Positions 58,392-64,000 of a stretch of DNA of 64,000 nucleotides are shown here, one piece after another. The notes below the pieces were generated by a model that searched no databases, was not told the origin of the DNA, and saw only the letters and a list, made by a program, of their open reading frames with translations. The position numbers were made by a program, and so were the translations under genes. Within the stretch, counting starts at the first letter, position 1; each line of letters opens with the position of its first letter. The DNA comes from Spirochaeta cellobiosiphila DSM 17781 (GTDB lineage Bacteria > Spirochaetota > Spirochaetia > DSM-17781): the NCBI RefSeq assembly GCF_000426705.1, contig NZ_AUFW01000012.1, positions 124,001 through 188,000 of the forward strand, written 5' to 3'.

Positions 58392-58504
58392 TGCCCTTTC
58401 CATCCCATACTCCTTGGAAACTCCCGTTGTTAAGTATTCTTGTTAAGCAGAATAAGAAAAAAGTGCGAAAAAACTTCCAATTCCTGAAAAAAACTTTCAA
58501 AAAA
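58392..58504. other. Phased A-tracts between deoD and the structured region
   Basis: Runs of 5-7 A centred near 58460, 58471, 58491 and 58502, roughly one or two helical turns apart, three of them continuing as ACTT. This is the pattern of intrinsically curved DNA. It would lie in or upstream of the promoter for the RNA and HU-type gene. Confidence 0.45.
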
Positions 58505-58911
58505 CTTCTCGATTTTCCCAAAACAGCTGAGAAGAAGCCTATGTAAGGGGAAGAACCAAAGCCCACAAGCCAAGGACCCAAGCATACCGGCTTTCACACC
58601 CCTCTCCTTACCCCCGAGCGTTGCTCAGGGAAATAAACAAAACAGAAAAGGAACAAGGTAAATTGTAAACTCCCAGGCTAAAGGCCACAGCCAAGGAGAA
58701 CAAAGCCTATAAGTTCCGGGCAAAGTAGCTAAAAGCTACCAGCTAGGCCAAAAGCAAAGTTCAAAGTAGTGAACTTGCCAGAAGGCCGAAAGTCGAAAGA
58801 TTTGTCCCAAGGACAAGGAAGAGATCTGAAGCCAAAGCGCAGTGTACTCCCTGTACATGAGCATTTGTCTTCAGGTCGATGACGCCGTAGTTGGGACAAA
58901 GATGAGACGCC
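58505..58911 (+). ncRNA. Candidate large structured RNA (leader of the HU/DUF4469 gene)
   Basis: No coding frame, but many nested complementary pairs. Checked helices: CTTCTC 58505/GAGAAG 58529; GTAAGGGGA 58543/TCTCCTTAC 58603, enclosing AAAGCC 58558/GGCTTT 58589; GAGC 58616/GCTC 58623; GGAAC 58650/GTTCC 58713, enclosing CTCC 58670/GGAG 58695 and GGCT 58676/AGCC 58689; GTAGCT 58725/AGCTAC 58734; GGCC 58746/GGCC 58784, enclosing AAGTTC 58757/GAACTT 58771; TTTGTCCCAA 58801/TTGGGACAAA 58891, enclosing GATCTGAAG 58823/CTTCAGGTC 58869 and TGTAC 58843/GTACA 58853. Two helices need G-U pairs that exist only in plus-strand RNA. It ends 3-14 bases before the HU-gene ribosome site, so a regulatory leader or a processed RNA are both possible. 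No known RNA family recognised. Confidence 0.55.
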
Positions 58912-58928
58912 CCAGGAGAGTTATATTT

Positions 58929-59627
58929 ATGATTAATTACTATTTACACCAAAACAAACTAGGAACAGCAAAAGAAGACAGCCTATTCATCGCCCGAGTC
59001 AAACCAAACCTTCATGTTAACCATGATGATATGATTGGCTTGATGGCAAACAAGAACACCACCGTATCCCGACAGGACATTGTGGTTGTTATGGATCTAC
59101 TAAAGGAAGTGTTAGAAGAACAACTGGTATTAGGAAATACGGTTAGTACGAACATTGGTCGCTTTTATGTATCCCTGGGAGGAGGCTTTGCTTCGACTTC
59201 CGATGAATATGATTCTACGAAACATAGCCTTAGGATAAAAGCTAAACCTAACACCCAATTAGTTAGTACTGTACAAGGTAAGAGTAGCGTTACCAGAGTT
59301 CGCTATAATCCTGTGACTCCTGTTATCGATACGATCTATGATATGACCAGTCAGAGCTTTAGTTCTGATCTAGTAGCAGGTGCTCTTATTGAACTTAGGG
59401 GGAACTTATTTAAGGGTGAAGATTCTGATAAGGCAGGTGTGTTCTTTATCAATTCTGATACGGATGTTGTGACTAAGATCAGCTCTGTTTATAGGACGTT
59501 GCCTTCTAGCATTTTGCTCTCTATACCCGAGGATTTGGAAGCAGGGAATTACACGGTTGAGGTTCGGACTATGTCGGGATCTGTGTTGAGAACTGGATCT
59601 TATTATGATGAAGTGACTGTTATGTAG
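58929..59627 (+). CDS. HU-like DNA-binding protein with DUF4469-type C-terminal domain
   Basis: 232 residues from the ATG at 58929 (AGGAG ten bases upstream); a longer in-frame reading would enter the structured RNA. The N-terminal 120 residues resemble HU/IHF-related proteins: NTTVSRQDIVVVMDLLKEVL, LVLGNTVSTNIGRFYVSLGG and KHSLRIKAKPNTQLV. The C-terminal 100 residues (VAGALIELRGNLFKGEDSDK, SSILLSIPEDLEAGNYTVEV) match DUF4469, an Ig-like domain found after HU-like domains in Bacteroidetes and spirochaetes. Probably a nucleoid or regulatory DNA-binding protein. Followed by a strong terminator. Confidence 0.87.
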   Translation: MINYYLHQNKLGTAKEDSLFIARVKPNLHVNHDDMIGLMANKNTTVSRQDIVVVMDLLKEVLEEQLVLGNTVSTNIGRFYVSLGGGFASTSDEYDSTKHSLRIKAKPNTQLVSTVQGKSSVTRVRYNPVTPVIDTIYDMTSQSFSSDLVAGALIELRGNLFKGEDSDKAGVFFINSDTDVVTKISSVYRTLPSSILLSIPEDLEAGNYTVEVRTMSGSVLRTGSYYDEVTVM

Positions 59628-59880: not shown

Positions 59881-60109
59881 ATATGGGAACACCAATTAAG
59901 ATACCTTTTTATGAACATGAATTTCATATATCACTAATCTGTCTTTCATATGGCCCTCTGAACAGTTGTTAATATTGTTCATAGCTATTGATTTTTTAAC
60001 TTTGATTGAAGATTTGGGTATAAAATGGTGATTATTTTGTAGTTTTTAGGATTTTATTTGATCACGGGAAAAGTTGAGATGTAATATGTTGTATAGAACA
60101 AAAGGATAA
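59881..60109. other. AT-rich upstream region of the helicase gene
   Basis: 229 bp without a gene. A possible promoter is TTAACT (59996-60001), 17 bp, TATAAA (60019-60024). ATGAA/TTCAT inverted repeats occur near 59911-59926. No attC or attI site was recognised here. Confidence 0.4.
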
Positions 60110-63052
60110 ATGAGTAGAATGCTTTTTTTTATTGATAATATTGATAAATACCAATCAGATTCTGTAAATGGCCTTAGAATATGCCAGTTAGGTGCGATCT
60201 GGTCCATTAAAAGTCATTTTACCATTTCAAATAATCCAGCACTTGTAAGTCTTCCAACTGGTTCTGGCAAAACGGCATTAATGATGGCATTATCATTTGA
60301 ATTGACTGCCAAAAAAGTACTTATAATAACTCCTTCACAAGTAATAAGGCATCAAACAAACCAAAAATTCTCAACACTAGATGATCTTTGTAAAATTGGA
60401 GTATATAAGAATATAGATAACCGTTTTCCTATAGTACATGAACAAATAGGATATATTAAGACAGATGATGATTGGAAGCAATTAAGCGAAGATTATGATG
60501 TGGTTGTTTCTACTCCTAACAGTTCATCTCCTCATCTATTGAATGTAGCTAAACCAAATGAAAATTATTTTGATTTAGTTTTTATTGATGAAGCTCATCA
60601 TACTAGTGCTAATATCTATGATTCAATTTTGAATTCTTTCAAAGAATCAAAAATAATTCTCTTAACTGCCACACCTTTTAGAAGAGATAAAAAAAGAATT
60701 CCTGGAAATCTTATTTATCATTATCCAATATCAAAAGCTATACAGGATGGAATTTATAGAGTTGTTAAATATTTTCCAGTAAATACTACAATACCAGAAT
60801 CTAAAAAGGATAATGATTTAATCCTGGCAGAATATGCAAAGAAAAAATATCAAGAAGAAATTAAAACTAATAATGATGCTAAAGTTCTTATCAAAACGGA
60901 TTCTATTTCTCATGCAGAGAAACTTATAAAGGTATATAAATCAATAAATTTTAATGTAGAATTAATCCATAGTAAGAAAACTGATAAGCATAACAATAAG
61001 ACCGTAGCTGACTGTAAAGATAATAAAATCAGTGGAATTATTTGTGTTGGTATGGTTGGTGAAGGATTAGATATTCCTACTCTAAAAATGGCTGTATTGC
61101 ATAAGTCCCCACAAACACTGCCCGCAACAATACAATTTATAGGTCGCCTATCTAGATTTAATAATCAAACGGGGAATTCTATATTAATTTCAGATCCTAA
61201 TTTCATAGAAGGAGAAGTAAAAGAACTATATAGATATGATGATGGATGGGAGAAAATCATACCAAAATTAATAGATAGAAAAATACAAAATACGACATAT
61301 GTAGGAAGACTTGGTAATCAGGCAAATTATGAATTATCTTTTTCTAAAAATGAAATCAATCCTTTCTTTACAGTAACCGTTTATGAATTGCTAAATGGTT
61401 TTACAATAAAAGAAAACTATATTACTGAGCTCCCTTCTGATATCGAATACTATATTCTAGATCGAGATGATAATGATCCTTACATATTTATTACTAAGGT
61501 TGAGGAAAATATTCCTTGGGTAATTAACTCTCTCTATACAGAAATGAATCACGAAATTCATATTTTCTATATAAAAGATAACTTTCTTTTTGAACATACA
61601 AGTTCTGAATTTTATAGTCAGAAAATTAGAAATATATTATTTAACAAAGATACTTATAGGAAAGCATCAAGCAAAACTGTAATACAAGGATTAAAAGATA
61701 CAGATGGCCATTATGTAATGGTTGGTATGGCGAATATAACTGGTACCACGCACAGTAATCCCAAATATAAAACATATATGGGTAATGAAATTGAGAATTC
61801 ACTAAGATTGACTGATGGTAGAAACTTTACTGCTGGGCATGCTTTATCAAAACATGGTGAAGATACTAGGGGAATAGCCACAAAAAACAGTAAGATTTGG
61901 TCAATTAAAAGGGATTCTCTTCAGAAATTTATTGATTGGTGTGATCATTTATATACTTTAATCCATTTACCAGATATTGATTTTCAAATCCCTAGAATGG
62001 GAATGTTGGCAAAGAGTGAAATTATCACCGAAATTCCAGAAGAACCAATTTCTATTTATTTTGATGATATTGAGTTACAACAAAATATATTAAAACTATA
62101 TATTGAAAATGAGGACTATACTAATCCAAACATAAAAATTTCAATTGTAAATATGTCATTAGATAAGAAAAGTATATGTTGTATGATGAATCTTGATTTT
62201 ATAGATGATCCAATTGAATGCAAATATGAAATTGATCAAAAAGGATATTGGGAAGTTGAGACAGATAAACAAATTAGAATTAATATTAATATGATAGATA
62301 ATAAAAATAAAAGTTATATAAATTTATCTGAATTCTTACAAGATTATTCGCCTCTCATTATTTTGCAGTCAGGAAGAACTATTAAGAATAACGTATTATT
62401 CACTCCTCAAGTCCAAAATGAAAGATTTGATCAAGAATTATTTTTATCAGATAAAATTGATTGGGATGATACAGATATATTCAAGGAAGCAGAAGAACCT
62501 GATTCTAAATATAAATATAATGTGCAAGAAAAAGTAATATCAGTAATTTCTAAAGGTCGGGATGATAAAGATTACTTTTTTGTTGATGATTCTAGTGGTG
62601 AAGTTGCAGATATAATATGGTTCAATAATACAAGCACAGATAAAACAATTTATTTTATTCATTGTAAATTTAAGCATAGAAGTTCAAAGGCTGATCAAGA
62701 TAGAACTCCAAACGGAGATAAAAAAAATATAACGGAGCTGATAGATCAGGGAATTCGTTGTGGGTTTTGGATAAAATCTCCAAATTTAATAAGCCAATTA
62801 ATTGGAAGGTTAGAACGTACTCAGAAATCAAAAGTTTTATTCAATAAGGAGGTTGAATTCAGAAATTTTGAATTTGAATATTCTCCATATGATTGGAAAT
62901 TTAAAGTAATTTTAGTTCAACCGGGTTTGGCTAAAGAAGCAGTATTTAAAACAAGTCAAATTACTAATATCGAGAAAATGTTAACTACATTATTTGATAG
63001 AACAAGAAGTATAAATGCTGATCTTGAAATATGGGGAAATAAGAAATCATAG
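60110..63052 (+). CDS. Superfamily II helicase with nuclease-like C-terminal region (putative defence protein)
   Basis: 980 residues; AAGGA before the ATG. Helicase lobes: Walker A LPTGSGKTALM (GSGKT 51-55), DEAH 160-163 (LVFIDEAHHTS), TATPFRR (186-192), and motif VI QFIGRLSRF (342-350). About 450 residues of unknown structure follow. Near 828-855, SSGEVADIIWF and YFIHCKFKH resemble a PD-(D/E)xK-like core; relatives that I recall carry GE(I/V)AD...HCK in a C-terminal nuclease-like domain. Codon use is AT-rich, unlike the upstream genes. A TIR-domain gene follows after an attC-like site. A DNA-targeting defence role is inferred. Confidence 0.83.
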   Translation: MSRMLFFIDNIDKYQSDSVNGLRICQLGAIWSIKSHFTISNNPALVSLPTGSGKTALMMALSFELTAKKVLIITPSQVIRHQTNQKFSTLDDLCKIGVYKNIDNRFPIVHEQIGYIKTDDDWKQLSEDYDVVVSTPNSSSPHLLNVAKPNENYFDLVFIDEAHHTSANIYDSILNSFKESKIILLTATPFRRDKKRIPGNLIYHYPISKAIQDGIYRVVKYFPVNTTIPESKKDNDLILAEYAKKKYQEEIKTNNDAKVLIKTDSISHAEKLIKVYKSINFNVELIHSKKTDKHNNKTVADCKDNKISGIICVGMVGEGLDIPTLKMAVLHKSPQTLPATIQFIGRLSRFNNQTGNSILISDPNFIEGEVKELYRYDDGWEKIIPKLIDRKIQNTTYVGRLGNQANYELSFSKNEINPFFTVTVYELLNGFTIKENYITELPSDIEYYILDRDDNDPYIFITKVEENIPWVINSLYTEMNHEIHIFYIKDNFLFEHTSSEFYSQKIRNILFNKDTYRKASSKTVIQGLKDTDGHYVMVGMANITGTTHSNPKYKTYMGNEIENSLRLTDGRNFTAGHALSKHGEDTRGIATKNSKIWSIKRDSLQKFIDWCDHLYTLIHLPDIDFQIPRMGMLAKSEIITEIPEEPISIYFDDIELQQNILKLYIENEDYTNPNIKISIVNMSLDKKSICCMMNLDFIDDPIECKYEIDQKGYWEVETDKQIRININMIDNKNKSYINLSEFLQDYSPLIILQSGRTIKNNVLFTPQVQNERFDQELFLSDKIDWDDTDIFKEAEEPDSKYKYNVQEKVISVISKGRDDKDYFFVDDSSGEVADIIWFNNTSTDKTIYFIHCKFKHRSSKADQDRTPNGDKKNITELIDQGIRCGFWIKSPNLISQLIGRLERTQKSKVLFNKEVEFRNFEFEYSPYDWKFKVILVQPGLAKEAVFKTSQITNIEKMLTTLFDRTRSINADLEIWGNKKS

Positions 63053-63078
63053 TGCTATTTAATTGATGAACGAGAGTC

Positions 63079-63217
63079 TATACAACAAGCAAATGCAACT
63101 GTCAATTTCTTTGTCACAATTTTTGCCTTCGGCCGTTCATCGACTAATCGTCGCTGAACTCAAAAATCGCGCCAATCGCTTCGCGAACGAACTTGCAGCT
63201 GATTTGGACGTTATATA
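63079..63217 (+). mobile_element. attC-like integron recombination site
   Basis: Arms pair as in attC: the left R box TATACAAC (63079-63086) with GTTATATA (63210-63217), 7 of 8 pairs; ATACAAC and GTTATAT each fit RYYYAAC / GTTRRRY in 6 of 7. Next are 3-nt unpaired spacers (63087-63089; 63207-63209), then the L boxes CAAAT (63090-63094) with ATTTG (63202-63206), then one extra base on the left (G 63095), then CA-CTG with CAG-TG. The interior folds further: ATTTTTG 63119/CAAAAAT 63161, GTTCA 63135/TGAAC 63155, CGAC 63141/GTCG 63150. The extra base in the left arm gives the orientation seen after cassette genes, 26 bases past the helicase stop. It is also GC-richer than the DNA around it. Confidence 0.6.
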
Positions 63218-63269
63218 CACTTTAGGAAAGAAAACTATAGTTTTAATTTTATATCGAGGTTGTACCTAA

Positions 63270-64000
63270 ATGATTGTTTATAGAAAAAATAAGATCCCAT
63301 ACTTATATTCTGAGTTAGGTTACCTTAGACATCATGAGAACTCATTTATTGTTTTTTGCGATTGTATTGATGATATTGATATGATTCATGATATGCAAGC
63401 AATTATAAGAGGAGATAAATGTTTATCAGAAATCGAAGGACCATCATATTTATATATTGCTGCTGATATTCCTGATGAAGTATTATCTCTTTCGGGTAAC
63501 TCAAATAAAGTAATCGAATGGAAATTATATTTTCTTAAGGTTTATGATGTAACAACATTAATCGATGAAGTCTATCCATCAGAAGCAAAAAGAATTTCTG
63601 ATTTAGATTTATCAGCTGATAGATTAAATAAATTATTTGATAATAGGACATGTATTCCATTTCTTAATGAAGTTCAAAAGTTTTATGATTATGGTGATTA
63701 CAAAGGTGTTTCCATAAGTAAAGAAATACTTGAAAAAATAGAAAAATTGGAAAATAGAATTTTAGCTGGAAAAAAGTTAATTGGTTTGAAGCAAATTCCA
63801 AAGGAACCTTCAATTACATTAACAAAAAATCACTCTGAATTAAAAGTATTTATATCTTATTCATGGTCTAATGAAAATTATGCTGATGAATTAGATATTT
63901 TATTTAATACTAAGGATATAATTTTACAACGTGATAAGAGAGATATAAAATATAAAGATAGCATAAAGGAATTCATGGGGAAAATTAGAATTGCTGATTA
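63270..64000 (+). CDS. TIR-domain protein (truncated by window end)
   Basis: 243 residues are visible from the ATG at 63270 and the frame is still open at the end. Residues 1-185 form an unrecognised N-terminal domain (YLYSELGYLRHHENSFIVFC; YLYIAADIPDEVLSLSGNSN). From about residue 190 a TIR domain starts: LKVFISYSWSNENYADELDI, then a DIILQRDKRDIKYKDSIKEF stretch and MGKIRIAD. Start follows the attC-like site by about 50 bases. TIR domains in prokaryotic defence cleave NAD+ or make cyclic ADP-ribose signals; the catalytic Glu would lie beyond or at the window edge and cannot be judged. Pairs with the upstream helicase in position only. Confidence 0.75.
   Translation, partial: MIVYRKNKIPYLYSELGYLRHHENSFIVFCDCIDDIDMIHDMQAIIRGDKCLSEIEGPSYLYIAADIPDEVLSLSGNSNKVIEWKLYFLKVYDVTTLIDEVYPSEAKRISDLDLSADRLNKLFDNRTCIPFLNEVQKFYDYGDYKGVSISKEILEKIEKLENRILAGKKLIGLKQIPKEPSITLTKNHSELKVFISYSWSNENYADELDILFNTKDIILQRDKRDIKYKDSIKEFMGKIRIAD

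What the first reader, a model, noticed from the sequence alone, without database searches (positions are those of the whole stretch)
63079..63217. attC-like integron site between a helicase gene and a TIR gene
Seen: inverted R boxes (each 6 of 7 against RYYYAAC/GTTRRRY), unpaired 3-nt spacers, L boxes and one extra base in the left arm, with further inner helices. Known: these are the parts of attC sites, and the extra base in the left L box sets orientation. Inference: the helicase may be in one gene cassette and the TIR gene may start the next, so a (possibly integrase-less) cassette array carrying defence genes may begin here.
Basis: partly seen in the sequence, partly recalled or inferred. 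Interest (0 to 1): 0.85.

Follow-up and report, generated by a model that had tools for sequence, protein, structure and literature searches.

The report
Integron start: attI and first cassettes
The hairpin between the helicase and TIR genes is a real integron recombination site, the helicase is the first gene cassette behind an intact-looking attI site, and this spirochaete-class genome carries seven copies of that attI but no detectable intact integron integrase gene.

Summary
Window 63080-63216 is an attC site. Its bottom strand folds far better than shuffles (z -4.4). A covariance model built without it still finds it at 62 bits, as the only hit in the window; the same model finds two class 1 integron attCs and the published attC of Treponema brennaborense. 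The array does begin here. Five more attCs in the same orientation follow within 13.5 kb. The first cassette is therefore the helicase gene (60089-63210); its R'' box (ATACAAC) is the exact complement of the attI junction GTTGTAT. The TIR gene is the second cassette and obeys the same rule. No intact intI was found in the 96%-complete assembly, only internally deleted remnants. The helicase has a C-terminal PD-(D/E)XK-like motif and the TIR protein a TIR domain; an anti-phage role is inferred, not shown. Integron cassettes with defence genes are known. The unusual part is seven attI copies heading or interrupting several arrays, including [intI remnant-attI] units with recombination cores at both ends.

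The parts
58842..59627 (+). HU-like DNA-binding / DUF4469 gene next to attI; part of a repeated unit whose left edge lies at 58429 (GTTAAGT)
   Evidence: PF14848, PF14734 and PF18291 above cut-off; unit repeated at C1:110588 and C24:556466, further copies at contig ends
59949..60090 (+). attI site, one of seven copies; crossover G60088|T60089
   Evidence: Seven copies, the longest 92-94% identical, conserved up to GTT and diverging immediately after it
60089..63210 (+). first gene cassette (3.1 kb), helicase
   Evidence: Left end TTGTAT at the attI core; R'' ATACAAC of its attC is the exact reverse complement of GTTGTAT at 60088-60094, the only GTTGTAT in the 482-bp intergenic region
60110..63052 (+). 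980-aa SF2 helicase (ResIII/DEAD + Helicase_C) with a conserved C-terminal SGE-x-AD...H-x-K motif, PD-(D/E)XK-like
   Evidence: Pfam; alignment with four 27-30% identical homologues
63080..63216 (+). attC site of the helicase cassette (bottom strand folds; the first base of R' GTTATAT closes the cassette)
63211..64000 (+). second gene cassette (TIR), starts TTATAT and runs past the window end to its attC at contig C2:188730-188829
   Evidence: R'' ATATAAC of that attC is the exact reverse complement of GTTATAT at 63210-63216
63270..63998 (+). 435-aa TIR-domain protein (N-terminal part in the window; complete CDS C2:187270-188577)
   Evidence: PF13676 TIR_2 at residues 193-302, E 5e-12

Best explanation
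This is the head of a sedentary chromosomal integron array. attI lies at 59949-60090. IntI-type recombination at its core (G60088|TT) inserted the helicase cassette, whose single-strand-folding attC lies at 63080-63216. The TIR cassette follows, with more cassettes beyond the window. The array was built by an integrase acting on attI as a duplex and on the folded bottom strand of attC (the mechanism is established for integrons; here it is inferred from anatomy). The present genome has no intact intI in the assembly, so the array is probably frozen unless an integrase acts in trans. attI has been copied to seven places, so several arrays start from, or are interrupted by, their own attI.
For: attC: fold, covariation and an independent model. 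Model validity: it finds class 1 attCs next to dfrA14 and cmlA and G233:1344415-1344528, which matches the published T. brennaborense attC at 1344413-1344528 (PMC3607928); 20 of 31 relatives give no hit at E 0.01 with the sister model R1. Array: six same-strand attCs at C2:187080-200650. attI: seven copies conserved to GTT, then diverging. Cassette ends: the attI 7-mer is the exact complement of the next R'' in 5 of 7 copies (permutation 145/100000). R''(n) matches R'(n-1) across this genome (0/10000 permutations), and exactly in all 18 consecutive pairs of the two main arrays checked in relatives with intact intI.
Against: No intact intI next to this attI; an HU-DUF4469 gene sits there instead. 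attI was recognised by repeat conservation and the core boundary, not by similarity to a characterised attI. No excision or integration was observed. The assembly is 96% complete in 29 contigs, some ending in the HU repeat, so an intI could lie in a gap.
Confidence: 0.95

Rival explanations
1. The structure is an ordinary stem-loop (terminator or other repeat) between two unrelated genes and resembles attC by chance.
For: The inner part has GC-rich hairpins, and the gene order is what any intergenic terminator would show.
Against: Leave-one-out covariance hit E 3e-13, shuffle controls, covariation, five further same-strand sites on the contig, and cassette ends that match at the G|TT cores.
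Confidence: 0.02
2. Helicase and TIR genes form one stable two-gene defence system that happens to have an attC-like relic between them.
For: Both encode protein types common in anti-phage systems and lie side by side on one strand.
Against: Each gene has its own attC with matching cassette ends. Homologues do not co-occur: helicase homologues in G023, G194, G264 and G276, TIR homologue in G207 only; no TIR gene lies near the helicase homologues fetched.
Confidence: 0.06
3. The seven attI copies arose by ordinary segmental duplication (homologous recombination or IS-mediated) of an integron head, not by integrase action on attI.
For: HU-attI is shared over 1.67 kb between two loci at 92%; IS elements lie in the arrays; copies have diverged by 6-13%.
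Against: The [intI remnant-attI] units at C2:198.8 kb and C24:548 kb are alike between two G|TT cores but flanked by different attCs and cassettes; four junctions of attC right half to intI 3' flank fall at the core.
Confidence: 0.5

Closest known systems
Sedentary chromosomal integrons of spirochaetes (Treponema denticola type; PMC3607928)
   Same: Same class of bacteria by the T. brennaborense match; attCs with R''/L''/L'/R' boxes and a protruding base; long cassette arrays; intI loss with remaining attCs is known in T. phagedenis.
   Different: In Treponema intI points toward attI; here the remnants point away from the cassettes (the usual arrangement). That paper states one attI per integron; here seven copies.
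CALIN elements (attC clusters lacking integrase; term from general knowledge)
   Same: attC arrays without an intact intI.
   Different: attI is retained, in several copies, with decayed intI next to some of them.
Delta-attI-type gene cassettes of class 1 and 2 integrons (PMC12901181)
   Same: A unit that carries attI in place of attC at its end, bounded by cores; shown in class 1 integrons to be excised and inserted by IntI1.
   Different: Here the unit carries an intI remnant antisense to the cassettes and a long (100-142 bp) attI, in a chromosomal array.
Integrons as anti-phage libraries (Darracq 2025, Getz 2025, Kieffer 2025; cited in PMC12444791)
   Same: Cassettes that encode defence-like proteins.
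   Different: Different phylum; no activity tested; large helicase cassettes (2.9-kb gene).

Membership tests
attC recombination site | R'' and R' boxes (RYYYAAC / GTTRRRY) that pair | tested here: met
   ATACAAC and GTTATAT, each 6/7, pairing with one bottom-strand G-T; AAC and GTT invariant
attC recombination site | L'' and L' boxes, spacers, extrahelical base in L'' | tested here: met
   63090-63101 with 63196-63206, extra G63095
attC recombination site | bottom strand folds, structure conserved by covariation | tested here: met
attC recombination site | recombined by an integron integrase | not testable with these tools
   needs an assay
Integron cassette array | two or more same-orientation attCs with single genes between them | tested here: met
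   six attCs at C2:187080-200650; most ORFs of the array on the same strand
Integron cassette array | cassette ends at G|TT, R'' complementary to the cassette's own left end | tested here: met
   helicase and TIR cassettes exact; control 18/18 in G005 and G025 main arrays
Complete integron | attI adjacent to the first cassette | tested here: met
Complete integron | intact intI gene next to attI | tested here: not met
   only deleted remnants in the genome; TIGR02249 above cut-off in 8 of 31 genomes searched, not in this one
Anti-phage defence cassettes | protects against phage | not testable with these tools
   domains only: SF2 helicase with nuclease-like motif, TIR

The most novel reading that the evidence does not exclude
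The platform itself moved like a cassette: a unit made of intI (now decayed) plus attI, bounded at both ends by G|TT cores, was inserted into attC sites of the arrays by attI x attC recombination, which multiplied attI in one genome and gave several arrays their own entry point.
Probability: 0.3. Interest if true: 0.72.

Novelty: new variant of a known kind. Interest (0 to 1): 0.52.

Why it matters
It places candidate defence genes in cassettes directly behind attI in a deep-branching spirochaete lineage with no held relative below class rank. It also gives a natural case of multi-copy attI, which would let one ask how integron platforms duplicate and what happens to cassette arrays after the integrase dies. 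The R''-to-previous-R' rule used here is a simple way to find cassette borders and attI sites without knowing attI beforehand.

Tried and rejected
Rfam has no attC family that fires here. The helicase as a query found no close relative in GTDB genome contigs. An HU-attI search in 30 relatives found nothing outside this genome. The attI region is single-copy in the parts of two relatives with intact intI that were compared (G025, G005), so multi-copy attI is not shown to be general in the class. The two best TIGR02249 hits (C27) lack model positions 182-238 (177-241 in the second), which include the region of the IntI-specific insertion, and are taken as Xer-type recombinases. No sigma-70-like promoter was found at attI by the simple scan. 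The literature search for 'multiple attI sites' found no paper, which is weak evidence because only open-licence papers are held. The PNP-based scan for named neighbours returned only distant relatives.

Full report
What was claimed.

The attC site is real. The bottom strand, which is the recombining strand of attC sites, folds with z -4.39; the top strand does not. A custom scan for R and L boxes gave it 38.5, whereas 0.95 Mb of shuffled sequence gave one site over 30 and none over 32. Sixteen sites of this genome were aligned; the R and L helices show 12 pairs with changes on both sides and a covariation score of 0.464 against at most 0.082 for slid pairings. A covariance model made from these (R1) finds 45 sites in the genome. 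To avoid circularity, a model without the window site (R2) was made: it finds the site at 62.2 bits, E 3.2e-13, alone in the window. The same model finds two attCs of class 1 integrons, beside dfrA14 and cmlA, though it misses others there. Across 297 genomes of the class it finds sites in 60, among them G233:1344415-1344528, which coincides with the published T. brennaborense attC, 1344413-1344528 (PMC3607928). G233 is unnamed; the identification as T. brennaborense, and so of the class as Spirochaetia, rests on this match and the genome size.

The array. On the window's contig (C2; window = C2:124001-188000) six attCs lie in one orientation at 187080, 188730, 192096, 197671, 198731 and 200543. 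Other arrays lie on C24, C9, C1 and C5.

In an inserted array each cassette begins with the TTRRRY that it brought from its own circle, so the R'' box of cassette n should be complementary to the R' at the end of cassette n-1. In this genome the fit is 5.61 of 7 on average against 5.02 (sd 0.12) for permuted partners, 0 of 10000. In two relatives that have an intact intI, all 18 consecutive pairs of the main arrays fit exactly; two pairs in a third, weaker stretch of G005 do not. Applied to the window, R'' of the helicase cassette (ATACAAC) predicts a left end GTTGTAT. That 7-mer occurs once in the intergenic region before the helicase gene, at 60088-60094, 15 bases before the start codon. The 140 bases before it (59949-60090) occur seven times in the genome, 92-94% identical for the longest copies, and all copies are conserved to GTT and then diverge. 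In five of seven copies the 7-mer at the junction is the exact complement of R'' in the next attC found downstream (permutation 145/100000); in a sixth (C9) it matches a later attC. This repeat is therefore read as attI, with the helicase as first and the TIR gene as second cassette.

The integrase. TIGR02249 finds no intact intI in this genome, while 8 of the 31 genomes searched (this one included) have one above cut-off. Remnants at C2:199 kb and C24:547 kb are internally deleted and 92-94% alike. They lie antisense to the cassettes, with attI at their 5' side, which is the usual integron layout and not the inverted layout described for Treponema.

Platform copies. Three loci have the order HU-DUF4469 gene, attI, cassettes (in C24 an IS-containing stretch separates HU and attI), and two of these (C2, C24) then clearly have [intI remnant-attI] and more cassettes; in C1 the second attI has only short intI-unit pieces before it. 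The [intI remnant-attI] units begin at the core of an attC in four places, with different attCs to the left, and end at the attI core. So they have core sites at both ends, like a cassette with attI in place of attC. Units of that kind, delta-attI-type cassettes, are known and can be excised and inserted by IntI1 (PMC12901181). That the units here moved in this way is an inference; segmental duplication remains at least as likely. The HU unit also has a sharp left edge at GTTAAGT in six copies; whether that is a core site is not known. The attI region is single-copy in the compared parts of G025 and G005.

What the cassettes encode. The 980-aa helicase has ResIII/DEAD and Helicase_C domains and a C-terminal motif SGE-x-AD...H-x-K conserved in four distant homologues, which resembles PD-(D/E)XK nucleases. 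The TIR domain lies at residues 193-302 of 435. PADLOC matches are weak for both. Elsewhere, cassette genes soon after attI include an Mrr-helicase (C1) and a PDC-S39 candidate defence protein (C24); two GajA/OLD-like proteins also occur. Many cassettes encode other things (acetyltransferases, methyltransferases, NUDIX), so 'defence array' is too strong; 'array with several defence-like cassettes' is fair.

Verdict. Observation confirmed and interpretation supported. As a cassette array it is a new member of a known kind; the seven attI copies and core-bounded intI-attI units make it a new variant.

Noticed in passing
window 58429-59627; also C1:110588, C24:556466, C26:1-170, C6:1-169, C2:1-962, C4:173460-end, C29:212339-end, C19:1-281: Multi-copy unit with a conserved ~400-nt leader before HU-DUF4469 genes. 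Six copies share a sharp left edge GTTAAGTA(C/T)T(C/T)TTGTTAAG (one base differs in C6) with unrelated flanks. In C29 the leader is about 81% identical although the protein is only about 37% identical. No Rfam family matched in the window.
   Followed up: partly
C2:198831-199735, C24:547044-547965, C2:193140, C24:303525: [intI remnant-attI] units, or pieces of them, begin exactly at the recombination core of an attC, with different attCs on the left.
   Followed up: partly
C1:112254 onward (L112:6250-13430): The array behind another attI copy starts with a PHP-like reading frame, judged by eye only, and soon has an Mrr-ResIII helicase gene (736 aa) overlapping a 786-aa gene.
   Followed up: partly
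C2:200731-202697 (L009:14731-16697): MazG-like gene overlapping a 545-aa Schlafen-group-3 helicase with an N-terminal GIY-YIG-like match, downstream of the last attC detected on C2.
   Followed up: no
G063:C1:3603756-3604687 and 1670710-1671634: In another genome of the class, attC-like sites repeat every ~400 bases with nearly equal scores, which suggests tandem short or empty cassettes.
   Followed up: no
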